NCBI RefSeq assembly: GCF_000340215.1
Contig: NW_006921544.1
Location: 1,057,714-1,121,713 of the forward strand
DNA from: Pseudocercospora fijiensis CIRAD86
Lineage: Eukaryota > Ascomycota > Dothideomycetes > Mycosphaerellales > Mycosphaerellaceae
Direction of reading: 5' to 3'
DNA: 64,000 bases
This document shows positions 47,139 through 62,640 of the stretch, in pieces. Below the pieces are notes generated by a model, which was given only the letters and a program-made list of their open reading frames with translations, had not been told where the DNA came from and did no database searches. The position numbers were made by a program, and so were the translations under genes. Numbering within the stretch: the stretch's first letter is position 1; each line of letters opens with the position of its first letter.

Positions 47139-47217
47139 ATAGTAATAAAAGTTTAGATATATATCTAAAGTCTCTTCCTATACTAACGTAGTATTAAAGT
47201 ATCTATCTTAAAAAACA
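47139..47217. repeat. Left flank repeat of the hAT insertion
   Basis: A TTTAGGT-family half-palindrome followed by CTAACGTAGTATTAAAGTATCT. A closely similar 75-bp stretch lies just right of the hAT at 56765-56835, so the transposon sits between two related copies. Confidence 0.75.
47210..47217. repeat. 8-bp target-site duplication of hAT, left
   Basis: AAAAAACA, repeated exactly at 56745-56752. Confidence 0.9.
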
Positions 47218-47237
47218 TAGACCCCGTAGTAGTTCGG
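47218..47237 (+). repeat. hAT left terminal inverted repeat
   Basis: 20 bp, perfect inverted match of 56725-56744. Inside it, CCGAACTACT (47241-47250) forms a further inverted copy of AGTAGTTCGG, so the tip can fold back. Confidence 0.95.
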
Positions 47238-47363
47238 TTTCCGAACTACTAAACGTATATAGTTTGGTTTCTTAGCGGCGAACTAGCTCCCTAGTTCCGG
47301 TTTAGTTTTTTCGAACTATATAGATTCCTAGTTTAAACTAGAGACTATATTAGTTTTACTATA

Positions 47364-47665
47364 AGGATACTCTTATTCGACTGCCGGCTACGATTGCCGG
47401 CTATAATAGTAACTCTATTACATTTACTACGCTCTTTTACCGTTGCTAGGGCGTAGTTGCCGTTGCTAGGGCGTAGTTGCCGTTGCTAGGGCGTAGTTTT
47501 GCTATAAAGACACTCTTATTCGACTACCGGCTACGATTGCTAGCTATAATAGTTACTAGGTTGTATTTACTACGCTTTATTACCGTTGCTAGGGCGTAGT
47601 TGCCGTTGCTAGAGCGTAGTTGCCGTTGCTAGGGCGTAGTTGCTATTACCGGGGCATAGTTACCG
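47364..47665 (+). repeat. Subterminal direct repeat of about 136 bp with 20-bp sub-repeats
   Basis: The block starting with ACTCTTATTCGACT occurs at about 47368 and 47504. Each block holds a CCGGCTACGATTGC motif and ends in three tandem copies of TTGCCGTTGCTAGGGCGTAG-type units. Repeated subterminal motifs are typical transposase-binding regions of hAT elements; that role is inferred here. Confidence 0.8.
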
Positions 47666-47812
47666 TAGTTGCGAAAGCTTACCTATATAACGTTATATAG
47701 GCGGTAACAATTAGGGCTTCGCGATATTCTTACACTTTCAACTTCTTCCTCTATATCTATACCGACAATAACTACTATACGCTACGCCCCCGCCCCTTTC
47801 CCTTATAATAGC

Positions 47813-49310
47813 AAGAGAGAAGCGCGCCGCGCGCTAAATAGAAGATAGAACTAAAGACCGCGAGTTTGTTTTGCCTAAGCGTCTAACTAAAAAGCGCAAG
47901 ACTAAAGAGGAGTACTCTACGAAGAAGAATTCCGTACGAGACCGCGAGAGAAAGGACAAGATAGATAAGGATAAAAGAGCTAAGGATAAGAGAAGAAAGG
48001 CGCGGAATAAGGCATTCTATCGATAGCTAGCGCCTATAGAAAAAAGTAAAGGTTAGAATAAGAAGACAACCTAAGAGAAGGCTAAGAGGAGGAAAGAATT
48101 GCGGCTAGTTTTCGAGCGTAAAGTTCTAGTAGCGTAAGTTAATCTAGCTAGCGGCTATAGCTAGCGGCTATAGCCGGTAGCTATAGCCGGTAGCTATAGC
48201 CGGTATATTTTTCTTTAATACGTTAACTAATAGCATTTAGACCTATAGCCGCTACCTCTATCGATACGACCGATAGTAACGGAGATATTTAGATAGCCGA
48301 GAACAACAATACTAGAGTTTAGGATGCCGCGATAGAGCTTAATACTACGAATAAAGGAACTGAAAAAAGCGAGGAGATACTATATATCGATCTAGTAATA
48401 GGTATAGTCTTAGGGCCTAACGCTATAGACGATAAGCGCTAGGAGTAGATCGAGTATAGTTAAAGAGACGAGATACTAGTAAAGGGCTAAGGTATAAGTC
48501 CTATCAATCTAGAAAATTATAGTTAAAGCTACTACGAAAAGCTAGTAAGGATTAGAATCGAGACTAGTTATCTTTATATCCTCGATATAGAGTAGAAGTT
48601 TCTTTATTAGTATTAGAGCGAAGCCTTTACGTCTATAAAGGCAAAGTAGCTTACGATTAATGCGATCGGGGCTAGGTATCTAGGGACGGTAGAAGTATTA
48701 CTATAGGAGGAAGGGGTATAGGTAATTATTCTATACTCGGTATATATAGCCGGCGTTCGTAGCCGGTAGATACTAATAGTTAAATAGAAAGCGTTTCTCG
48801 AAGGCAGAGTGCTACTACTATATAAAATCTTTACTAAGGTAGAGAGGGCTTATATCCGGAATCTAAGCTACTAGTAGGATAGGTTAGCGTTAGAATTCTC
48901 TAAATCTCTATATAAGCCTCCGAAGGATTACCTATTTTAGCGATACGGCTTTATCTCGACTACTCCGTAGGTACCCGAAGAAGCTCGAGCGCTCTTTAAG
49001 GTCTTTACTAAGAAGCGGAAGGAGTTCGAGGATTAGGATTAGTTAATAGAGCTGTTAGTTAGTCTTAGGTTTCGTAGTTAGACTCGGCCTAAGTATTTGC
49101 TTATCGAGTGTCTTATACCGAAAGAGGATAGATTAAGACTAAAAACGAGCTTAGATTCGTTAGGTATAGTAGCTCGGTTCCGTTAGTAGGAGAGAGCCGC
49201 CGTATAGAAGGCAAAATTTAGGTAGTTAGGGTAGCTAGGAAAGAAATTCTAGTAGTTAGGCTAGCTAGGATAGCTAGGAAAAAAAATCTAGTAGTTAGAT
49301 AGCTAGGAAA
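47813..49310 (+). pseudogene. Unrecognised Lys-rich gene in hAT (gene 1)
   Basis: A probable start (ATG to ATA at about 47808-47813) is followed by a highly basic stretch: REKRAAR, FVLPKRLTKKRKTKEEY, then DKIDKDKRAKDKRRKARNK. A clean intron lies at 48134-48240. The second exon is acidic at first. After about 48510 a coherent frame shows RIRIETSYLYILDIE, INAIGARYLGTVEVLL and LYKPPKDYLF, ending in Gln/Leu/Gly-rich degenerate repeats near 49200-49310. No family recognised. Its position before the transposase suggests an accessory hAT protein or captured gene. Confidence 0.55.
48134..48240 (+). other. Intron with CCGGCTA/TAGCCGG repeats
   Basis: Donor GTAAGTTAAT, branch TTAACTAAT, acceptor CATTTAG. 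The interior is five near-tandem copies of AGCGGCTATAGC / AGCCGGTAGCTAT type. Confidence 0.85.
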
Positions 49311-49355
49311 CAAAAAAAAAGGTAGCTAGCTATTTACTACCTAGCTATTCCTAAC
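49228..49355 (+). repeat. Degenerate GTAGTTAGGGTAGCTAGGA minisatellite
   Basis: Short TAGTTAGG and TAGCTAGGAAA units mixed with A-runs, at the 3' end of gene 1. Read in frame they give (Q)LG(Q)LGKK-type repeats. Confidence 0.7.
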
Positions 49356-49389
49356 GATACGATACTATAAAAGAAAGGGTGTTTCTCTA

Positions 49390-50116
49390 TAGCTACTAGT
49401 ATATATCTACTACTCCTAAGTCCTTACTTTACCGTACGAAACCTTAAAATATACCGACCGATATTATATATATACTAGGCGCTATACTAGGAAGGGTAAT
49501 AACGAGACAATAGTCGAAATAGTCTAGTATACGAGCGAGATTACGATAACGTCGAGAGGAGGTCGTATACTTACCTTCGAGCCTATCGAGTCCTAGACTA
49601 CGATTAGGGCTAGATTTATCCTCTCCGAATCCTAGTAGTAGGAATTTATTATAGGGTACTACTACCTAGTCCTTACCTTTACGGAGTCTAAGTAGAAGAT
49701 TATTCGGAGATATAAGAATATCGAGTATTAACCCGGAAATCTTCGAAAAGGCTAGCTAGGCGTATCTTTAGAAACCCGAGTATATAGAGTAGTTCAATTA
49801 ATAGGTCTATAAGATATAGTTCCCTTTATACTTACGTTCGAAGGAGTGTAAACTCCGGAAGTACTCGATACGATAGGGGAGTAAGGAGCGAACGGATACA
49901 TTCTAGAAGTTCTTTATAGAGGGGGTATTATACCGTTATACGACTTCTCGACTTAAAGGTTAACTAGTAATTGTCTATAACTTCTACGGTTCAATCTTAA
50001 AATACCCGAAACTAGGGGATAGGAACTTATCGCCTACGAACTATCTCTATTCTAAATAGTATCGGGAATCTTAAGGAGAGAGGAGAGTTAATATAGATAT
50101 AGCGTTCTAGAAAGAG
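49390..50116 (+). pseudogene. Unrecognised gene in hAT (gene 2)
   Basis: Coherent plus-strand frame of about 240 codons: YTRRYTRKGNNETIVEIV, ITITSRGGRILTFEPIES, TRVYRVV(Q)LIGL, DIVPFILTFEGV, GGIIPLYDFST. It ends at an intron donor (50117) whose acceptor (50216) leads into the transposase frame, so it may be the 5' exon of the transposase gene rather than a separate gene. I see no clear BED zinc finger, which many hAT transposases have at this position. Confidence 0.5.
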
Positions 50117-50216
50117 GTATGTCTTCTAAAATGCCGGCTATAGCTACCGGCTATAGCTACCGGCTATAGATTCCGGCTACCTAAATTAACCGTAGAGATC
50201 TAGCTAATTATTATAG
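50117..50216 (+). other. Intron with CCGGCTA repeats
   Basis: Donor GTATGTCTTC, branch-like AGCTAATT, acceptor TTATAG. It contains four copies of the CCGGCTAtag type in tandem (50133-50181). Confidence 0.85.
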
Positions 50217-52566
50217 GCTACGCTTAAGGAAGCTCTAAGATTAAAGGCTACCGATTTCTCTCCCGAAGACTTTAAGTAACTAGCAAACGAAATGCTAGCT
50301 ACAAACGGTCTTCCGGAAGACTTCTACGAAAGGGAGTCTATATAGAAGATATACCTATATCTTATAAACTACCCTCCCCTATTTCTCGGCGCGATAACCT
50401 AGCGTATTATATTCGAAAAGAACAAAGAGGCTACGTTAGACGACATTTGGGAGATCCTCCGTAATACTCGCCGAGTAGCTATTACTATCGATAGCTAGTT
50501 AAGCCGGACTATAAGAGCCTCCTTCCTTTCGATTATACTATACTTTATTAATTCGGATTAGAAACTCTAGGAACTTATAATCGGATTCCCTAAAATTCTA
50601 GGTTCCTATACTAGTAAGGATATAGCGAAGCTTGTCTATACGGTAATAGATAGGGTTAGCGTAATAACGAAACTAATCTCGATTACTACGGATAACGCTA
50701 GTAATAATCGAACATTATATAAGGCGTTATATATACAATTTACTCGTATATATCTTTAAAATTACTAATTATATCGATAGGGTTAAGTACGTAGAGGAGA
50801 TTATAAGGTCTATAATCTAGCTTAATCTTCCGAATATTAAGCTCGCTACGATTCCGGATACGTACGATAATACGTACGATAATAACGATAAAGAGGAGCC
50901 TATTAATAGCCCTAGCCCTATTAAATCGGAGCCGACGTCGTTACTAGTTATATCCCTATAGAAGTTTCCCTACCTCGCTTATATCGTTTAAATCGCGATC
51001 CGAGCCCTCTTTAAGACGCTTAAAATTACACTATTAAACGACGACTAATAGAAGATCCTAGATAAGGATAAAGCAAAGTCGAAAGTCGAGAAACTTATTA
51101 TAGTAATAAGACGGGATAAGGTAGAGAGCCTCGCTCTCGTTTTATATAAGGTATAACTTTTGTCCGTAGCTGGCACCTATAGCCGGCAACCTAGTATAGT
51201 TCTAACTCTTTTTCTCTAGCTTCGTCGTCTAGTAATATATACGAACTCGAGCTTATAGAGATATAACCGATTCGAGGCTATTTAAAAGAACCTAATCGAG
51301 CGCCCTAAAACCGATACTTAGAATATCGTATAGAATAAGCGATAGTAAAAGCGGCCTCCTTAGCGCCTACTCCGTTTTACCTAAGACGTTAAGACCCGCT
51401 TCGATTCGACTTTCTATATAGTTACGAGGGGATGTACTTTACGTACCGCTCTCGAGATCTATTAGAGTTCCGAGGGTATTAAGTAGCTCGGCCTTACCGC
51501 CGCCGAATAGCGCTAAGTAGAGTATCTCGTCGATATTAGTAAGCATTACGCGAAGGTTACTACTACGATTAGAAGAACCCGAGGACCGACGATCTACCTT
51601 ATCTTTATATACTATAACTAGCTCTTTAACGAGCTCGAGGAAACTATAGCTAAGCTAGCTAAGAAGAGCGTTCCCTAGAAAGTAGCTATAACGAAAGCTA
51701 TAGACATCTCCTATACTAAGTTGTATAAATATTATAGTACTACCTTTAACTCGTTCGGGGATATCTATAGCGTTATATACTTACTTAACCCGGTAGAAAA
51801 GGATATATACTAGTAGAGGCCGGAATAGAAGGCGGACGAGGTATAGCCGAAGTATTACTAGACTATTCTAGAAAAGATATTCTACGAGCGTCGGAAAGAA
51901 ACTAGTCTAAATATAGCTCCTATAAAGAAAAAGAAGGTTTAGAAGGCTCCGATATTATACCTATTTCGTAGGTAGGAAGTAGAGGCAGAAGAGGAAGCAA
52001 CTACTAAAGTAAATAAAGAAGAGTTCGATCTCTATCGGCGCGCGAGTAAATACAAACCCGTAGGCTCGGAAAGAGGGCTAATAATCTCTAGATCTTACCG
52101 GTCTTCTAGACGAATTCGGAGACGATATTCTCGCTATATAGTAGCGGTTAGAGCCTAAGTTTCTAACGATAGCGTCGGTCGCTCGGAACGTCCTCGCTAT
52201 TCCGAGCGTAGGTATAGGCTATAAGAGGTCTTTTAGTATCGCTCGTTACTAAGGCCGCTTTAATCGAATATACTCGCCTACTACCTTCGAATCTATTATA
52301 GTATTCCGATACTATCTCCTCTACTAGAATCGCTAAGGTAGGTTACTAAAGATTATACTAAAGGAGTTAATCGAGGAATTAGAAAACCTTAAGATCGAAG
52401 AAATCTAAGAGCGCGAAGAGAATACGAAATTTAGTCTAAGCGAAACCCTAATTAGCGATAACGAAGAGGAGGAGGGCGGAGGTAGAAGGCGATACCGGGT
52501 CGAGAAGCGGAAACGTATATAGGCTTAGAGTAGCTTTAAGGAGACGAAGCGTTTACGTATAAGGTA
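50217..52566 (+). pseudogene. hAT-family transposase
   Basis: Cut-and-paste transposase of the hAT superfamily. The catalytic-core region is clear: RRVAITIDS..LSRTIRASFL (50470-50525), FINSD(W)KL(Q)ELIIGFP (50545-50590) and LISITTDNASNNRTLYKAL (50670-50725), the last being the family's hallmark TTDNASNN block. The C-terminal dimerisation (hATC) region at about 52150-52260 reads IASVARNVLAIPSVGIGY.RSFSIAR. An intron is at 51151-51219. Length including gene 2 would be about 900-1,000 residues, within the family range. Numerous in-frame TAG/TAA codons inactivate it. Confidence 0.92.
51151..51219 (+). other. Transposase intron with AGCCGGC pair
   Basis: Donor GTATAACTTT, branch TTCTAACTC, acceptor TTCTCTAG. 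It holds TAGCTGGCACCTATAGCCGGCA, an imperfect palindrome of the element's CCGGCTA family (the first G-A change is RIP-like). Confidence 0.8.
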
Positions 52567-52735
52567 ATATAGCCGGCGTATATAGCCGGTATATATCCGA
52601 AATGTGTTTCGAATTCCTAGGACCTAAATAGACTAGTTGCTATAGCAACCGACCCCGCTTACCTACGGACTATTTCTAATTCTCTATTCGCTCTTCCTCT
52701 CCTTCTTCCCTTTCCCTATATTTTTAAAGATAAAT

Positions 52736-53519
52736 ATACCTTAAGGATTCGGCTCTTCGGGCCTTCCTAAGCCGGCTACCTTCCCTTCCTTAAGCTACTA
52801 TCCTTTATTCGAATCTAACGATAACCTAATAAGGCGGTTTAATAGAAGACTATTTGTTCTAGAAGGTAAGAAGTATTAATATCTCCTTACGATTATATAC
52901 TTATTAATTTCTAGGTCCTACCGATATACCCTCGTCGCCTAAACGCGTAGATAAATATCTTTAGAGGCTAAAGGGTAAGGGTAAAGTAAGCTAAGTATAG
53001 GGAGACTATAGCGAGAACGAGATATCGGAAGAGTAAGGCTCTCCGTAGTATATACGAAGGAAGGGGATTCCTCGGAAAACAGTACCGAAAAATAAGAAGG
53101 CTATAGGTAGATAGGAGAAGGCTAAAAAGAGTAGGCGGACGAAGACTATCGCGAAGAAAAGTTATCTTTCTATTAAAAGAAAGGGAACAAGGTAGGACTC
53201 GACGATAAAGAAGCGGCGCTTTAAACTAGGTACTATTACCCTTCGCTAGATCCGGCTTTTCTAAAACAAAAGAGGGACCGAGCTTTTAATCCCTAAGACT
53301 CCCTTCTAGCGACTCGTCCGAGAAATTATATTAGATTTTCGGTCTAGTATGCGATTTACGGCTAAGGCGATTAGTGCTCTTTAGGAAGCTACGGAGGCAT
53401 TTCTCGTAACCGAGCTTAAGCTTTTAAACCTCCTTGCTATCTATACGAAGCGGGTTACTCTTTAAAATAAAGATATATAGCTTCTAGCTAAAATTCGGCG
53501 TCGGTTTATAGCGGATTAG
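52736..53519 (+). pseudogene. CENP-A-like histone H3 variant carried by the hAT
   Basis: Removing one 49-bp intron (52866-52914) leaves 735 nt, 245 codons in one frame, with TAG/TAA at former Gln/Trp codons. The start is ATG changed to ATA at 52736. Residues 1-141 form a long basic tail (PRKTVPKNKKA, KKSRRTKTIAKKS). From 53208 the histone fold follows in order: RRFKLGTITLR(Q)IRLF(Q), LLIPKTPF(Q)RLVREI, DFRSSMRFTAKAISAL(Q)EA, TEAFLV, LLAIYTKRVTL, KDI(Q)LLAKIRR. Fold length is normal. CENP-A-like traits: long divergent tail, MRF where CENP-A often has MRW, and AFLV rather than AYLV. H3 landmarks RLVREI, AL(Q)EA and AIxxKRVT are unmistakable. Histones package DNA; CENP-A marks centromeres. That role here is inference. 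Confidence 0.88.
52866..52914 (+). other. 49-bp intron in the CENP-A-like gene
   Basis: GTAAGAAGTA donor, TTATTAAT branch-like site, TTTCTAG acceptor. It splits a Gly codon and joins LFVLEG to PTDIPSSP in frame. No palindrome inside. Confidence 0.75.
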
Positions 53520-53599
53520 TTAGAAGTTGTATTTAGTCGTTAGATTAACCTAGGAGGAGGCCTATTTTCGTATCCTTTTACCGGCTATAGGTGCCGGCT

Positions 53600-54240
53600 A
53601 CATTTCTAATTTTATCTCCGCGCCGTCCCTAAATCTAAGGTACGAAGTAGAAACCTAGCGCTCTATATTTACCCGGCTATTATAGAGACGAGCTACATTT
53701 AGATTAGTTTCTTCGTATATCGCGACCTAGCGGGTAGTAAGCGAAAGGGCGATAGAACGTTTATAATACGTCTCTATTTAGACCTAAAATATAAAGGTCC
53801 TAAGGAGCCCTAGTATCCTAACTATAAGGAGATTCTTTAGTATTAGTACTTTAATCCTCTATACTACGAGGCAGATAGCAAGCCTGCGAGAGAGAAACTT
53901 TAACGAGAAATTCTCTATAATACGTAGCGCTATTGTATAGCTATAGATACGTACTAAGTCCGGCAACTCGAAGAAGAATTAAGATAGCGTATTAGCGACC
54001 GAGGAAGAGATCGATAGTATACTAGTAGAGTCGAGGTCTTATAAGCGAAGTATACGATAATATAGGCTCTTAGTCGTATAGAGTAACGTACTATATAAAT
54101 AACTAGGCGTACTACTCTTATTTACTTACGACCTATATCCTAGGATACTCCTCTCGTACTTTTTATACTCTTTTCTAATACCTTACCTATAAGCGCTCCG
54201 CGACAACCGAGTAAATATAAGCTATAGGGTTTCCGCTCGG
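53600..54240 (+). pseudogene. Unrecognised reading frame between the two histone genes
   Basis: Coherent plus-strand frame: AVPKSKVRSRNLALYIYPA, FVYRDLAGSKRKGDRTFII, RLYLDLKYKGPKEP, NYKEIL, FNPLYYEADSKPARE, then a charged, probably coiled stretch with (Q)LEEELR. About 200 codons, with TAG/TAA at Gln/Trp positions. It follows an AGCCGG-type repeat pair at 53580-53603, which may lie in an intron or leader. I do not recognise the family. Confidence 0.5.
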
Positions 54241-54279
54241 TACCTTAGCCTCCGAGATAGGGCGGAGTTAAATTTAGAG

Positions 54280-54811
54280 CGATAGCCGGCACTCGTAGCC
54301 GGTATATAGAGACGGTAGTAGGCCTTTTCCTACTAAATAACTAGCTTGTTTAGTATAGCCTACCTAATATTTCTTATATTTACTAGCAATAGGCCTAGGT
54401 TACTTATAAGATTACTATAGCTAGTAAAGGCATTACTAAAGAATATCTATACTATAGTAAGATACTATTATTACGCCGGCTATTTATTAAAAGAAGGCTT
54501 TCGCCTATTACTATACCGGCTATATATGCCGGCTATATTTTAAAGTCTCCCGTACCTGCCTTTTTTAGCCGTACCTACCTTTTTTAGCCGTACCTACCTT
54601 CTTTCCTTACTCTAACGTTACTATAATATAGGCTTGCGCGAAGCTTACTCTATTGCCTAGCGATACCGCGATACTACCGCTATATTCAACCTTCGTATCG
54701 ATACCTATACCTCTACGCTCTATATCTACTACCTCTATAATACCCTCGCTTCGCGCGCGCTTTCGTATACCTTCGTAACGTACTTTTTTCCTCAATTCGA
54801 CGACTTTTATA
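54280..54811. other. Spacer between hAT cargo genes
   Basis: Holds AGCCGG/CCGGCT pairs at 54284-54303 and 54513-54534 and a threefold CGTACCTRCCTTYTTT repeat at 54550-54605, presumably leader and promoter of the H3-like gene. A 62-codon open stretch on the minus strand (54607-54795) has no family resemblance and I do not count it as a gene. Confidence 0.5.
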
Positions 54812-55076
54812 ATAGCGAGTCTACTTAACTAAGTTACGACGCCTCGTAAGAAGGGACCTAGTACTTCTACGGGTCGTAATAAGACCGGAAATAGTAGAAC
54901 GAGTATAGTACATTAACGTAAGAGGGCTGCTACTACTACCGCTAGCTCCGGTACTAGAAAGGGCGTCGCGAGCAAGGCTCCGCGTAAGATAACGGCGGGT
55001 AAGGCTCTACGTAAGACGACAACTAGCGCTTCTACTACTAGTAGCAATCGTACGAAGCGTCGATAGCGCCTAGGAA

Positions 55077-55155
55077 GTAAGTCCTATTTATAGCCGGCAG
55101 CGTAGCCGGCAGCGTAGCCGGCATTCTTACTATCTTTTTACTAATCCTTCTTTAG
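55077..55155 (+). other. Intron 1 of H3-like gene with AGCCGGC repeats
   Basis: GTAAGTCCTA donor, TTTACTAATCC branch site, TTCTTTAG acceptor. It contains three tandem TAGCCGGCAGCG-type units. Splicing restores RLGTVALR exactly. Confidence 0.9.
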
Positions 55156-55338
55156 CCGTAGCCCTCCGTTAGATTCGGCAGTATTAGAAGAGTTCTAAGC
55201 TCCTAATCCGTAAAGCTCCTTTCTAACGACTTATTCGCGAAATTGCCTAGGATTATAGAACGGACCTTCGCTTCTAAGCCTCCGCGATAGGCGCCCTTTA
55301 AGAGGCTATAGAAGCCTACCTAGTTCGTATCTTCGAAT

Positions 55339-55386
55339 GTATGTTTCTCTTCTACCTCTTTTCGGACTATACTAATACTATTTTAG
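55339..55386 (+). other. Intron 2 of H3-like gene (48 bp)
   Basis: GTATGTTTCT donor, ATACTAATAC branch site, TATTTTAG acceptor. Splicing restores the step from YLVRIFE to NLIAIYAKR, as in all H3 proteins. No palindrome. Confidence 0.88.
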
Positions 55387-55862
55387 CGGTCAACCTTATA
55401 GCTATCTACGCGAAGCGTATAACGATTATAGACAAGGATTTTAAAGCACTCGATTAGATTCTAAAAGGCTAGAATATCTACATTCGAGACGGTGCTAGGT
55501 AGGATAGATATTCTAGTAGAAAGGATATTCGTAGTGTTATCTATAAGCTTTTCTATATACGAAATAAGCCGCTATTATACGGCGCTATATACCGCGCTCT
55601 AAATACTCTCTAAGTATATATATATAGTATAGTATACTTTATTAGCCGTACGGAATAGAAGTCTCCTAAAATCCCGTTAGTACTAAGGAGTAAAAAGGCC
55701 GGCTACGCTGCCGGCTACGCTACTAGGTTTTTTAAAGAACTAAAAGAAGATAGATATTCCGGTTGATTTGTATTAGTTTAGATTTTTATAAAAAGAAAAC
55801 AGGGAAAAATAAGGAAGGTTAAAGAGCCTAATAGTTATAGTTATAGGTACTATCCCTGTTTT

Positions 55863-56312
55863 CTAGAGTATATTATATACCTGCCTTCGCAACTCTACCT
55901 AATACTCCCTCTAAATATCCTTATACTCTACCTACTAGAAATTCAACTAGGTACCTAGACCTATAGCTGCCTCTATATCTTTTACTATCTTCTATAGGTT
56001 GAAGGCCTCTTCTATAGTAGCCTCTACCTCCTTATATAATACGAAGTTACTACCTACCCTACCCTTTATATATCCTAAATAACTAAGAGTTCTAAGGAAC
56101 GAACTAGCATTCGGCCTTAGTATAGCGAGTAACTAGTAGAACGTTCTATAGAGCTGCCTTATAGCTCTTTTATATACTATACCGATACCGAGGGAGGAGC
56201 TATCCTAGTACTTAATGTTATCGAATAGTTCGGTAGGAAAGTATATAAACTTCTTAAGGAGGAGGACTTCTAGGGAAATCGATAAGTTCTACCTAGATCT
56301 AGATAAAGACAT
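55863..56312 (-). pseudogene. Small unrecognised minus-strand gene in hAT
   Basis: An intact ATG at 56312 (minus strand) starts 149 codons: MSLSRSR, ISLEVLLLKKFIYFPTELF, SSLGIGIVYKRAIR(Q)LYRTFY, NASSFLRTLSYLGYIKGRVG, then a probably coiled YKEVEATIEEAFNL and IVKDIEAAIGLGT. The TAG at 55863 may be its stop. Internal TAG codons stand at likely Gln/Trp positions; they are fewer than in the neighbours. Family unknown. It runs opposite to all other cargo genes and lies next to the right terminus. Confidence 0.55.
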
Positions 56313-56369
56313 TCTGCTAAGCAGTTAGGGAATTAAACCGTAAACGAAAGGATGAAATTTATACCTAAG

Positions 56370-56744
56370 GAGTGCAGTTTCCGAACTAAACTATAATGCC
56401 TTATATATATATATATATGCTTTTAATTAGTTAGTGCCCTTAGCTAATTGTCTATAGATTTGAGGTTATATAAGTACCTTTATACAACTACGTAGCCTAA
56501 GTAGGATTCGAAAATTCTATAAGTACTAAGGACTAAAAATGCCGGCTACGCTACCGGCTATACTACTAAGTCTTATAAAGGGCTTACTTAAAGCTACGTA
56601 TACATTCGTACACTTCTTAAAAACCGATAAATTATATAGTTCGAACTAGCTACTTATATAGTTGCTTAGTAAACCAACCTAAACTAAACTAGAGTTTCGG
56701 CTTAGCAAACTAAACTAAACTAACCCGAACTACTACGGGGTCTA
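56370..56744. other. hAT right subterminal region
   Basis: A TATATATA run (56404-56420), one CCGGCTACGCTACCGGCTAT palindrome (56541-56560), repeats of AACTAAACTAAACTA (56677-56723), then the terminal repeat. Confidence 0.7.
56725..56744 (-). repeat. hAT right terminal inverted repeat
   Basis: CCGAACTACTACGGGGTCTA, the exact reverse complement of the left terminus. The duplicated AAAAAACA follows at 56745-56752. Confidence 0.95.
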
Positions 56745-56764
56745 AAAAAACATATATATTATCT

Positions 56765-56884: not shown

Positions 56885-57385
56885 TACGTTTAGTATATAG
56901 CTCGCGTTCGAGATATAGCTCGCTATCGCCTACGAGACGTCGCGTTCGAGATATAGCGAGATGTCGCGTTCGAGATATAGCTCGCTATCGCCTTCGAGAT
57001 ATCGCGTTCGAGATATCCGCTATCGCCTATAAGACGTCGCGTTCGAGATTTCCGCTCTCGCTTACGAGACGTCGCGTTCGAGATATCGTATCCGAGATAT
57101 CGTATTCGAGATATCGCTCGCTATCGCGTTCGAGATATCGTATCTAAGATATTATATTCGAGATATCGCTCGCTATCGCGTTCGAGATATCGCGTTCGAG
57201 ATATCGCTCGCTATCGCGTTTAAGATATCGTATTTTAGATATCGCGTTCGAGATATCGCGTTCGAGATACGGCTCGCTATCGCGATTCGAGATATCGTAT
57301 TTTAGATATCGTATTTTAGATATCGCATTTAAGATAGGGCTACGCCTTCGAGATATTACGTTCGAGATATAGCTCGCTATTGCCC
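56885..57385 (+). repeat. GATATCGCGTTCGA-type minisatellite
   Basis: About 500 bp built from TTCGAGATATCGCG and TCGCTATCGCG-type units. Many units contain the palindrome GATATC or TTCGAA-like halves. Unit length varies between about 14 and 25 bp. CG is kept at high density, unlike the TA-rich surroundings. Confidence 0.9.
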
Positions 57386-57983: not shown

Positions 57984-60080
57984 ATTCTACTAGTAAAAAT
58001 CGGGCTTAGGGCTAGTATAAAATATTACTAAATTTAAGTAATTAGTATAGTTCTAGAAGGGTTATAGGTCCTAAACGACGGCTAGAATAGTCTAGTATTT
58101 AATAGGGCCTTGCTACGTCGTCGTCGCTATTATTTGTTTTCGGGTTTCTCGGGCTAGGGCTACTAAGCGTTACACTAGGGCTGCTAAGCGTTACACTTGC
58201 CTAGAAGTATTTTTAATAAATTAATAAAAATACTAGGGCGGTTTCTACGTATTATACTCGATATAATAGGCCTAGAACTAGGACTTAGAAGTAGTATACT
58301 AGTAGTAATAAGGGATATAAGTAACCTAGTACTATATAGGGTAGCTTAGGGTTACACTCGGGCTGCTAAGCGTTACACTTGCCTAGAAGTATTTTCAATA
58401 ATTTAATAAAAATACTAGGGCGGTTTCTACGTATTATACTCGATATAATAGGCCTAGAACTACGACTTAGAAGTATTATACTAGTAATAATAAGGGTTCT
58501 AAGTGTAGGGTCTTATAAAAGGTAGATAGAAATTCAAAGGAATTTAAATCAAATCCCTAAGTAAGTAAATAAATTATATTAAATACTATCGATTTATTCT
58601 AACGTTCTAGCTATCGAATAAGTAGTATAAAATAGCTATACTAATATTTTTAGTCCTAAGTACTAATAAAAATTAGCTAAAAATTCAAGGCAACTAGAAT
58701 AAAATATCTAAGTAAGTAAATAAATCGTAGTAAATTTCTACTAACTATCTACGATATTTTAGCGGCTAAATAGCTAGGGTAGGGTTAGGGTTCGATTTAA
58801 TTAGGGTAATATAGTATAGTATTAGGGCTATTATACCCTTATCCTTTATAGAAACCTACTATCTAAGCTATATAAAACGATTCTATTCTACTAGTAAAAA
58901 TCGGGCTTAGGGCTAGTATAAAATATTACTAAATTTAAGTAATTAGTATAGTTCTAGAAGGGTTATAGGTCCTAAACGACGGCTAGAATAGTCTAGTATT
59001 TAATAGGGCCTTGCTACGTCGTCGTCGCTATTATTTGTTTTCGGGTTTCTCGGGCTAGGGCTACTAAGCGTTATACTAGGGTTGCTAAGCGTTACACTAG
59101 GGCTGCCAAGCGTTACACTAGGGCTGCCAAGCGTTACACTTGCCTAGAAGTATTTTTAATAAATTAATAAAAATACTAGGACGGTTTCTACGTATTATAC
59201 TCGATATAATAGGCCTAGAACTAGGACTTAGAAGTAGTATACTAGTAGTAATTCTACTAGTAAAAATCGGGCTTAGGGCTAGTATAAAAAGTGACTAAAT
59301 TTAAGTAATTAGTATAGTTCTAGAAGGGTTATAGGTCCTAAACGACGGCTAGAATAGTCTAGTATTTAATAGGGCCTCGCTACGTCGCTATCGCTATTAT
59401 TTGTTTTAGGCTTTCTCGGGTTAGGGCTGCTAAGCGTTACACTAGGGTTGCCAAGCGTTACACTAGGGCTGCCAAGCGTTACACTAGGGCTGCTAAGCGT
59501 TACACTTGCCTAGAAGTATTTTTAATAAATTAATAAAAATACTAGGGCGGTTTCTACGTATTATACTCGATATAATAGGCCTAGAACTACGACTTAGAAG
59601 TAGTATACTAGTAGTAATAAGGGGTATAAGGGTCCTACTAATATATAGGGTAGCTAAGCGTTACACTAGGGCTACTAAGCGTTACACTTGCCTAGAAGTA
59701 TTTTTAATAAATTAATAAAAATACTAGGACGGTTTCTACGTATTATACTCGATATATTAGGCCTAGAACTACGACTTAGAAGTATTATACTAGTAGTGAT
59801 AAGGGGTATAAGTGTCCTACTACTATTCTACTAGTAAAAATCGGGCTTAGGGCTAGTATAAAAAGTTACTAAATTTAAGTAATTAGTATAGTTCTAGAAG
59901 GGTTATAGGTCCTAAACGACGGCTAGAATAGTCTAGTATTTAATAGGGCCTTGCTACGTCGCCGTCGCTATTATTTGTTTTAGGGTTTCTCGGGCTAGAG
60001 CTACTAAGCGTTATACTAGGGCTGCTAAGCGTTACACTAGGGCTGCTAAGCGTTACACTAGGGCTGCTAAGCGTTATACC
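57984..60080 (+). repeat. Subterminal tandem repeat (about 340 bp unit) with 21-bp sub-repeats
   Basis: Units beginning ATTCTACTAGTAAAAATCGG at 57984, 58885, 59251 and 59824, with partial units between (58340-58500, 59640-59820). Each holds one to four copies of GGGCTGCTAAGCGTTACACTA and a hairpin AGTATTTTTAAT...ATTAAAAATACT-type. Between units, 58501-58884 contains GGGTAGGGTTAGGGTTCG, a telomere-like motif. An open stretch at 59506-59715 falls in the repeat and is not a gene. Confidence 0.9.
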
Positions 60081-60185
60081 CTACGTAGCTATAGGGTTAG
60101 GGATAGGCGTCCGGTAGGGGGGCAGGGGTCTAGCTAATTAGCTATAACCGGCGATACGATAAGAGCCGCGAGCTAATTAGCTATA
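60081..60185 (+). repeat. TTAGGG-like and GCTAATTAGC motifs, junction
   Basis: TATAGGGTTAGGGATAGG at about 60089, then two diverged copies of the GCTAATTAGCTATAACCGGC unit of segment C. Confidence 0.65.
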
Positions 60186-60576
60186 ACCGGCGATAGAAAC
60201 GCTTACTTCTACGTATAACTATGTATTATACTATAACCTAGGAGTATTATACTAGTAATACTAAGTTTCTAAGTAGCCTATTACTACATTTAGTACTTAG
60301 TTTATATATAAATTAGCTAGGGTGTCTAAGGAATTTAAATAAAATCTCTAAGTAATAAAGTAAAGGGTTTCGAAGGCGAGATTTTTATTTCTACGTATTA
60401 TACTATAAGCTAGGAGTATTCTACTAGTAATACTAAGTTTCTAAGTAGCCTATTACTATATTTAGTACTTAGTTTATATATAAATTAGCTAGGGTATCTA
60501 AGGAATTTAAATAAAATCTCTAAGTAATAAAGTAAAGGGTTTCGAAGGCGAGATTTTTATTTCTACGTATTATACT
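60186..60576 (+). repeat. Tandem repeat, two units of about 185 bp
   Basis: Block starting at TTCTACGTATAACTATG, with AGGAGTATTATACTAGTAAT and GGTTTCGAAGGCGAGATTTT, occurs at about 60207-60390 and 60391-60574. Confidence 0.88.
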
Positions 60577-60638
60577 ACTATAGGGCACTTTAGGGTTAGG
60601 GTTAGGCGTATAGCGGGCGTGTAGTAGGGCGCCGGCGT

Positions 60639-61324
60639 CGGGCTAATTAGCTATAACTAGCGATACGGCAAGGGCCGCGGGCCAATTAGCTATAACTAGC
60701 GATAGGAACGCTCGCCCTCGCGCGCGACGTCGACGAGCCCTATTTACTATTTATCGCCTCCCTTATAGAACTATTCTCTATTTATTCGATATTATAATAT
60801 CGAAGGTATAAAAGAATATATTCTCGCGCCTGCTCGTAGGCCGCCTACGTATATTGCGAGCTAAATAAGAAGGCGGTCGTATTCTTAGTCGTATCTCGAC
60901 TACGCCCGCGTTAGGCTAATTAGCTATAACTAGCGATACGGCAAGGGCCGCGGGCTAATTAGCTATAACTAGCGATAGGAACGCTCGCCCTCGCGCGCGA
61001 CGTCGACGAGCCCTATTTACTATTTATCGCCTCCCTTATAGAACTATTCTCTATTTATTCGATATTATAATATCGAAGGTATAAAAGAATATATTCTCGG
61101 GCCTACTCGTAGGCCGCCTACGTATATTACGAGCTAAATAAGAAGGCGGTCGCATTCTTAGTCGTATCTCGACTACGCCCGTATCGGGCTAATTAGCTAT
61201 AACTAGCGATATAGTAAGGGCCGCGGGCTAATTAGCTATAACTAGCGATAGGAACGCTCGCCCTCGCGCGCGACGTCGACTAGCCCTATTTACTATTTAT
61301 CGCCTCCCTTATAGAACTATTCTC
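60639..61324 (+). repeat. 273-bp tandem array, copy 2
   Basis: Units begin at about 60639, 60912 and 61185 with the same internal organisation as at 30241. Confidence 0.9.
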
Positions 61325-61344
61325 TTAAAGTACTCTCTACGAGC

Positions 61345-62640
61345 TATACCGCGAAGATACCCTTCGCGGCCTTCGCGAAGCAGTCTTAATAACTCGCTAT
61401 ACTCTATATACCGCTAAGGACGTATTTAATAGCAAAGTCGGTATCTATACTAAGGTAAGTCTCGCCTTTACCCCTTTAACGCGCCGCCCGTTATATACTA
61501 ACCTAAGTAGGTTTATATCTACGGCGCGACTTTGTCTACTTATAGCTTCGCCGTCCGCGTTACTTTTAGTCTTCTCCGTACTAGTAAGAAAGTTCTATAG
61601 GAACCGCGAAGATACCCTCCGCGGCCTTCGCGAAGTAGTCTTAATAACTCGCTATACTCTATATACCGCTAAGGACGTATTTAATAGCAAAGTCGGTATC
61701 TATACGAAGGTTAGTCTCGCCTTTACCCCTTTAACGCGCCGCCCGTTATATACTAACCTAAGTAGGTTTATATCTACGGCGTAACTTTGTCTATACGTAG
61801 CTTCGCTATCTACGTTACTTTTAGTCTCCTCCGTACTAGTAAGAAAGTTCTATAGGAATAGTTAAAGCGCCTTATCGCCGGTAGCTTAGTCGTTCTTATA
61901 CTAATAAATAATAAGTTCGTGTCTCGCGCTATTATCGCTACTATTGCCGCTCGACTACTAGAGGGACTTTAGTAGAATCTACCTAAGCTTAATCTCGCCT
62001 TTACCCGTCCCGAGGAGTTAGAGCTAGATCCTACTATAGAATATCTTATAGTAGAGGACCGTAGCGGACTTTTCGAAGCTAATCGGTATACCTTGCTTAG
62101 CCTTTAGCGTATAATACGCGAGGGTTTCCCCTTATTAGAGTACCTCGTTAGTATATAGCCTTATATTTCGGCGCCTAAGTATTTTAAAGTATAGCCGAAG
62201 CGAGATCTAAGCTCTGTCCTAGTTAATAACTCTAACGAGAGCTTCGAGAATATTAATATAGTTAAGTACTAGCCTTCTAAGCCTAATAGTACTCTAGACG
62301 CCTCCTAACTAGAAGCGCTCCGTCGTATTCTAACGGCGCGTCTTGCTATTATTTAAGGCCTACCCGGTACTAGCAAGACCTATATCTCTATATAAGCTAT
62401 TAAAGTAATGCTCGAGAACTAGAATAAGGGAGATCTACTAATAATTATCGCTTATTAGACTAACTACGCTATCGACTAGTTTTTACGTTATATCGCTATA
62501 TTCGAGGAAGAATTTGTACGTCTCGGTAGTCGTAGTAAGGATAAGGATATCGTTAAGCCGCTTCGTTAGGATACGACGAAGCGCTTCTAGTTAGTAAGCC
62601 GCTTCGCTAGGATACGACGAAGCGCTTAAGAAATATTAAA
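61345..62640 (+). pseudogene. NFX1/ZNFX1-type SF1 helicase fragment, copy 2
   Basis: Same structure as copy 1, with the in-frame 255-bp duplication (about 61352 and 61607). Motif I at about 62348-62380 reads II(Q)GLPGTSKT. The motif Ia region and the truncation by 41-bp repeats (62555-62625) match. Both copies break at the same point, so the truncation precedes their duplication. Confidence 0.8.

What the first reader, a model, noticed from the sequence alone, without database searches (positions are those of the whole stretch)
47218..56744. A hAT DNA transposon carrying two different histone H3-fold genes
Seen: a 9.5-kb element with perfect 20-bp terminal inverted repeats and a perfect 8-bp duplication encloses a hAT transposase and, downstream on the same strand, two separate genes with the full order of H3 landmarks (GT.ALR.IR, PF.RL.REI, AL.EA.EA.LV, AI..KR.T). 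Each has its own introns, tail and reading frame. Histone genes are not part of known hAT elements, as far as I know. Inference: the element captured, duplicated and diversified H3, perhaps to influence chromatin at its insertion site, to be deposited as a variant, or to reach centromeric or silent chromatin.
Basis: partly seen in the sequence, partly recalled or inferred. Interest (0 to 1): 0.95.

Follow-up and report, generated by a model that had tools for sequence, protein, structure and literature searches.

The report
Dead transposon carrying histone H3 genes
[quoted passage not shown] the family was published in 2019, but one of the two genes is likely a copy of a real gene with its introns rather than of a messenger RNA.

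Summary
Confirmed, and already published. The element at 47218-56744 has perfect 20-bp terminal inverted repeats, a perfect 8-bp target duplication, hAT transposase remains and two histone-H3 frames (PF00125, E 2.5e-25 and 3.8e-22). Of 20 further copies fetched, 12 show both ends; all 12 hold both H3 genes, 10 with a perfect target duplication. All 150 scored H3-1 copies (845 candidates) carry seven or more stops. Dhillon et al. 2019 (PMC6710886) describe this family in P. fijiensis; Manning et al. 2013 describe a hAT with an H3-like gene in Pyrenophora. So histones in hATs were known. What the calls add: the second H3 gene has one clear and one likely intron, the latter being the published '16-residue insertion', which speaks against transcript capture for that gene; a dimerisation region reported missing is weakly detectable; the two H3 types (54% identical) are older than the subfamilies compared; pooled histone cores show modest constraint between subfamilies (transversion dN/dS 0.46, p 0.022 uncorrected), the tails none, and H3-1 alone no significant constraint. 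Any role in chromatin is untested.

The parts
47210..47217 (.). target site duplication, left (AAAAAACA)
47218..47237 (+). 20-bp terminal inverted repeat, left
47838..49340 (+). gene of unknown function (borders approximate, frame from 48242 on), full of stops
   Evidence: no Pfam match
49500..52560 (+). hAT transposase remains (borders approximate); catalytic exon about 50223-50747
   Evidence: catalytic exon without Pfam match in the window copy
52088..52471 (+). C-terminal dimerisation region of the transposase
   Evidence: weak PF05699 match in 15 of 15 copies
52866..52914 (+). possible intron upstream in H3-1, unsure: donor GC in 10 of 18 subfamily-A copies
52944..53560 (+). H3-1 exon: basic tail and histone core (core about 53229-53501); start of the gene unsure
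54830..55076 (+). H3-2 exon 1 (basic tail; start unsure)
55077..55155 (+). H3-2 intron 1, 79 nt
   Evidence: GTAAGT and CTTCTTTAG in 19 of 19 measured copies, 79-116 nt
55156..55338 (+). H3-2 exon 2 (histone core)
55339..55386 (+). H3-2 intron 2 (likely), 48 nt; the published 16-residue insertion
55387..55500 (+). H3-2 exon 3 (end of histone core; end unsure)
56725..56744 (-). 20-bp terminal inverted repeat, right
56745..56752 (.). target site duplication, right (AAAAAACA)

Best explanation
This is a 9.5-kb hAT DNA transposon, broken by stop codons of the RIP type, that carries two diverged histone H3 genes which moved with it; the genes were likely captured from a cellular H3 gene, H3-2 probably with its introns, and would have made H3 variants before RIP killed the copies. 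Shown: both H3 genes lie between the ends in all 12 two-ended copies examined besides the window's, each with its own target duplication; H3-1 is in all three subfamilies compared and H3-2 in the two where that part was read; every one of the 150 scored H3-1 copies is broken. Inferred: H3-2 came from genomic DNA, because it has an intron one codon away from an intron of the host H3 gene and a likely second one at a residue where H3 genes of other organisms seem to have one. Inferred with modest support: the histone cores were kept by selection while the element was moving, so the proteins probably served the element, for example as H3 variants in nucleosomes that would weaken the silencing of its copies. 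The family itself is in print since 2019.
For: Ends and duplication. 12 of 20 fetched copies two-ended, 12 of 12 with both H3 genes; duplication perfect in 10, one mismatch in 1, two in 1. Histone profiles. 150 of 150 scored H3-1 copies (845 candidates) have seven or more stops in the matched stretch. Family in print. Leaving out 55077-55155 and 55339-55386 gives one gap-free H3 frame. Intron 1 begins GTAAGT and ends CTTCTTTAG in 19 of 19 measured copies, 79-116 nt, never a multiple of three; intron 2 is 48 nt and ends TTTTAG in 19 of 19. In 4 of 15 fetched H3 proteins (P0078, P0079, P0080, P0083) an insert opens at the same residue with the frame expected of a retained intron. H3-1 and H3-2 rows each form one clade, 100/99 and 97/96. 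Transversions, which RIP does not make: pooled cores A-C 13 synonymous and 25 nonsynonymous, dN/dS 0.46, p 0.022; tails 5 and 24, 1.15, p 0.68; transposase catalytic exon 0.26, p 0.011.
Against: H3-1 alone is never significant: per-copy tests 0.38-1.03, all p at least 0.27; fixed differences 0.38, p 0.13; stricter count A-C 0.50, p 0.27, B-C 1.01. H3-2 cores alone 0.48, p 0.058. The p values are uncorrected for 11 regions and 4 pools; 0.022 would not survive correction. H3-2 exons carry more transversions (59 in 521 sites) than its introns (1 in 126) or upstream DNA (7 in 189), including at silent sites, which simple selection does not explain. Intron 2 is a multiple of three in length and its donor is GT in 6 of 19 copies, AT in 12, GC in 1, so an inserted peptide cannot be excluded. 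The organisms behind P0078-P0083 are not known, and these hits rank high partly because the query held the insert. The published authors saw no introns. No transcript or protein evidence was at hand.
Confidence: 0.52

Rival explanations
1. Passive passenger, as published: the element picked up a copy of an H3 transcript, multiplied it blindly (transduplication) and RIP broke the copies; the H3s never served the element.
For: The authors' reading. H3-1 runs through its core without an intron, as a transcript copy would. H3-1 alone shows no significant constraint and both tails evolve freely (1.15).
Against: H3-2 has a clear intron at 55077-55155 and a likely one at 55339-55386. Pooled cores look constrained (0.46, p 0.022 uncorrected). 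H3-1 persisted in three subfamilies and H3-2 in at least two.
Confidence: 0.35
2. Foreign origin: the H3 genes came with the element from another fungus, so they would not descend from the host's own H3 gene.
For: Core identity to the host H3 is only 58% and 70%; the host H3 has no intron at the 55339 site while some other H3s seem to; the place of both clades among H3s is unresolved.
Against: RIP-changed residues and fast evolution would give the same picture; an intron one codon from a host intron fits local capture.
Confidence: 0.1
3. Unrelated nested insertions or chance resemblance: the H3 frames are not part of the hAT.
For: Nested insertions do occur in the family: several of the 20 copies are interrupted.
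Against: 12 of 12 two-ended copies hold both H3 genes with their own duplications; histone E-values 2.5e-25 and 3.8e-22.
Confidence: 0.02

Closest known systems
H3-bearing hAT family of Pseudocercospora fijiensis (Dhillon et al. 2019, Mob DNA 10:37, PMC6710886; outline, parts 1-4 of 7 and passages read)
   Same: Length class 9.5-9.9 kb, 20-bp inverted repeats, 8-bp duplication, one or two H3-like sequences, 16 extra residues in the second, RIP in the copies, original H3 on scaffold 6 (here contig C6). The window element is a member.
   Different: They report no introns, mostly truncated H3 sequences, a transcript origin and no dimerisation domain; here H3-2 shows one clear and one likely intron, H3-1 a longer tail, the two types are far apart, and a weak dimerisation match is seen.
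H3L hAT of Pyrenophora tritici-repentis (Manning et al. 2013, G3 3:41, PMC3538342; passages read)
   Same: hAT with inverted repeats, transposase, an open reading frame of unknown function and an H3-like gene.
   Different: 5.6 or 2.3 kb, one H3 gene, most copies intact and transcribed; Dhillon et al. found no similarity between the element sequences. Common descent could not be tested here.
Pack-MULE and other gene-capturing DNA transposons of plants (as mentioned in the two papers above)
   Same: Cellular gene sequence carried between inverted repeats and multiplied.
   Different: Here the captured sequence stands beside a transposase in a hAT and is a nearly whole histone gene in two forms.

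Membership tests
hAT superfamily | 8-bp target site duplication | tested here: met
   window perfect; 10 of 12 other two-ended copies perfect, one with 1 mismatch, one with 2
hAT superfamily | short terminal inverted repeats | tested here: met
   20 of 20 bp in the window
hAT superfamily | transposase with RNase H-like catalytic core and C-terminal dimerisation region | tested here: inconclusive
   PF05699 in 15 of 15 copies, best E 0.0018, below the curated cut-off; catalytic exon only TNP-like_RNaseH_N in 4 of 12, best E 0.099
P. fijiensis H3-hAT family of 2019 | 9.5-9.9 kb, 20-bp inverted repeats, 8-bp duplication, two H3-like sequences, RIP | tested here: met
   window 9,527 bp; 12 other copies 9,549-9,663 bp
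P. fijiensis H3-hAT family of 2019 | second H3 has 16 extra residues | tested here: met
   48 nt at 55339-55386, in 19 of 19 measured copies; read here as an intron
P. fijiensis H3-hAT family of 2019 | genome of about 74 Mb with the original H3 on scaffold 6 | tested here: met
   73.9 Mb; stop-free H3 on C6; contig numbers may not equal scaffold names
P. fijiensis H3-hAT family of 2019 | ribosomal DNA on scaffold 7 of the same genome | not tested
   four requests got no answer
Histone H3 | core histone profile above the curated cut-off | tested here: met
   89.5 and 79.3 bits against 26.4
Histone H3 | standard length and tail | tested here: not met
   two extra residues before helix 1 in H3-1 and long, divergent basic tails in both
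Histone H3 | made and deposited in nucleosomes | not testable with these tools
   all 150 scored H3-1 copies are broken
Pyrenophora H3L hAT | common descent of transposase and H3 gene | not testable with these tools
   no Pyrenophora H3L recognised among the listed hits; transposase search found nothing

The most novel reading that the evidence does not exclude
The two H3 genes are long-standing genes of a lineage of histone-encoding hAT transposons, of which the Pyrenophora H3L element would be another branch: the element built its own H3 variants, with altered tails around lysines 9 and 27, into nucleosomes to blunt heterochromatin and RIP, a transposon counter-defence that acts through the nucleosome itself.
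Probability: 0.2. Interest if true: 0.85.

Novelty: already known. Interest (0 to 1): 0.4.

Why it matters
The family is in print, so its existence is no news. What could matter is the reading: an intron-bearing H3-2 speaks against the published transcript-capture model for that gene, and two old H3 types kept through several subfamilies raise the question whether transposons can carry histone variants as working genes. The published intact relative in Pyrenophora makes that testable.

Tried and rejected
Nested insertions or chance: rejected. Close relatives: the H3-1 search scored 167 candidates, 67 significant, none above 59% identity; the H3-2 search gave 1263 significant proteins, 120 listed, those with names being H3 or histone-fold proteins; the transposase search scored 7,995 candidates, none significant. 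Unknown frames: no Pfam match; P0004, P0008 and P0009 were translated in wrong frames and replaced by P0199, P0200 and P0198. Weak Pfam names such as Branch for P0007 (E 0.054), or Guanylate_kin and SelB-wing_3 for the catalytic exon, were taken as chance. Selection on H3-1 alone: not significant. A presumed fourth subfamily (L050-L052): L050 and L052 are subfamily A (98% core identity), L051 is at 94%. Rows dropped before the tree: H3-2 rows of L046 and L049, where my script found no exon-2 start, and P0086, P0173, P0175; of the five subfamily-C H3-1 copies three (L039, L040, L042) entered it. P0086 also has an insert near the intron-2 site, opening with another residue, and was not counted among the four. 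A telomere at the contig end: none seen. Structure prediction was not run, since the sequence profiles settle the fold. PMC4981457 was seen in a listing only (one search failed).
Full report
What is there. The window is the last 64 kb of contig C13 of a 73.9-Mb genome held in 30 contigs. At 47218-56744 stands an element with perfect 20-bp terminal inverted repeats and a perfect 8-bp duplication AAAAAACA. It is poor in CA and TG (ratio 0.17, TA/AT 1.91), the mark of repeat-induced point mutation (RIP); the whole window looks alike. On the + strand follow a gene of unknown function, hAT transposase remains and two H3 frames.

The H3 genes are real and belong to the element. H3-1 scores PF00125 at 2.5e-25 and matches solved H3 chains (best E 2.1e-28); H3-2 scores 3.8e-22. 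One search listed 39 other copies of the left end (40 of 490 candidates scored); 20 of the 39 were fetched. Of the 20, 12 show both ends inside the stretch and all 12 have both H3 genes; the duplications differ from copy to copy and are perfect in 10, with one mismatch in 1 and two in 1. Of all 20, 17 hold H3-1 and 15 H3-2; the rest are broken, interrupted or run off the 9.9 kb fetched. So the H3 genes moved with the element. 150 H3-1 copies were scored of 845 candidates; each has seven or more stops in the matched stretch, which reaches a little past the exon. In the histone-profile search 2 of 150 scored matches (772 candidates) are free of stops: C6:1692026, the ordinary H3, and C5:606604, which resembles centromeric H3.

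It is published. Dhillon et al. 2019 (PMC6710886; outline, parts 1-4 of 7 and passages) describe the family in P. fijiensis: 784 H3-like sequences in 471 elements, 133 of full length 9.5-9.9 kb, 20-bp inverted repeats, 8-bp duplication, 16 extra residues in the second H3, RIP in the copies, original H3 on scaffold 6. Manning et al. 2013 (PMC3538342; passages) describe an H3-like gene with ESTs in a hAT of Pyrenophora tritici-repentis. A 2026 paper cites the 2019 case (PMC13041039; passages). Literature searches.

What the calls correct. (a) Introns in H3-2. The frame changes between exon 1 and exon 2; 55077-55155 begins GTAAGT and ends CTTCTTTAG in 19 of 19 measured copies (16 of subfamily A, 3 of C) and is 79-116 nt, never a multiple of three. 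The 48-nt stretch 55339-55386 has GTATGT, TACTAAT and TTTTAG in the window; length 48 and TTTTAG hold in 19 of 19, the donor is GT in 6, AT in 12 (a RIP-type change) and GC in 1. Without both stretches the H3 frame is gap-free. The host H3 has an intron one codon before the 55077 site and none at the second site. Four of 15 fetched H3 proteins of other or unknown organisms have an insert that opens at that very residue in the frame expected of a retained intron (inference). H3-2 is thus likely a captured genomic gene; since intron 2 is a multiple of three, the published reading as an insertion stays formally open. H3-1 has no intron in its core; a possible upstream intron (52866-52914) has donor GC in 10 of 18 subfamily-A copies, so the start of that gene is unsure. 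(b) The dimerisation region, reported as not identified, gives a weak PF05699 match in 15 of 15 copies (best E 0.0018, under the cut-off); since unrelated families reach similar E-values with the catalytic exon and a structure-library search found no transposase, this is support, not proof.

Age and constraint. Three subfamilies were compared: A (window), B (L043, L044; about 88%) and C (L039, L040, L041, L042, L045; about 80%); L047 and L048 are the neighbouring stretches of the copies L045 and L041. H3-1 is in all three; H3-2 was read in A and in three C copies (L039, L047, L048), not sought in B. H3-1 and H3-2 share 54% of core residues in the window and have 58% and 70% in common with the host H3 (RIP lowers these figures). 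In a tree of 20 rows H3-1 (6 rows) and H3-2 (4 rows) are one clade each, 100/99 and 97/96; their place among other H3s is unresolved. As RIP makes transitions only, transversions were counted: pooled histone cores A-C dN/dS 0.46 (13 synonymous, 25 nonsynonymous, p 0.022), H3-2 cores 0.48 (p 0.058), H3-1 core 0.38 (p 0.13), tails 1.15 (p 0.68), transposase catalytic exon 0.26 (p 0.011), middle 1.55 (p 0.87), dimerisation exon 0.60 (p 0.32), whole transposase 0.75 (p 0.20), unknown gene 0.91 (p 0.44). Against this, H3-1 alone is never significant, the p values are uncorrected, and H3-2 exons carry more transversions (59 in 521 sites) than its introns (1 in 126) or the upstream DNA (7 in 189), which stays unexplained.

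Verdict. A member of a published family. The published origin model is contradicted by the sequence for one of the two genes, and there is a hint, no more, that the histones were working genes of the element. The remarks on lysines 9 and 27 in the novel case use recalled numbering on the tails seen.

Noticed in passing
47383-56560, e.g. 50133-50180, 52571-52600, 55089-55125, 56541-56560: Short arrays built on TAGCCGGC sit mostly in introns and between genes of the element: GCCGGC occurs 17 times inside and 10 times in the other 54 kb. Their copy number varies and lies behind length changes of H3-2 intron 1.
   Followed up: partly
54830-55500 against L039, L047, L048: H3-2 exons differ more between subfamilies A and C (0.10-0.16 transversions per site) than the introns between them (1 in 126 sites with L039). 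No explanation found.
   Followed up: partly
47351-47636: A 143-bp direct repeat, two copies in tandem, 90% alike, at the left end of the element, holding 20-bp units.
   Followed up: no
56902-57370: Just outside the right end, a degenerate tandem array of TCGCGTTCGAGATA-like units.
   Followed up: no
58154-61858: Several tandem arrays with periods of 21, 172, 182, 255, 273 and 366 bp, 91-97% matches, close to the end of contig C13; no telomere repeat array was seen.
   Followed up: partly
P0062 (Zymoseptoria tritici, 170 aa): A divergent H3-like protein of a related fungus, on the longest branch of the tree (0.88); its nature is unknown.
   Followed up: no
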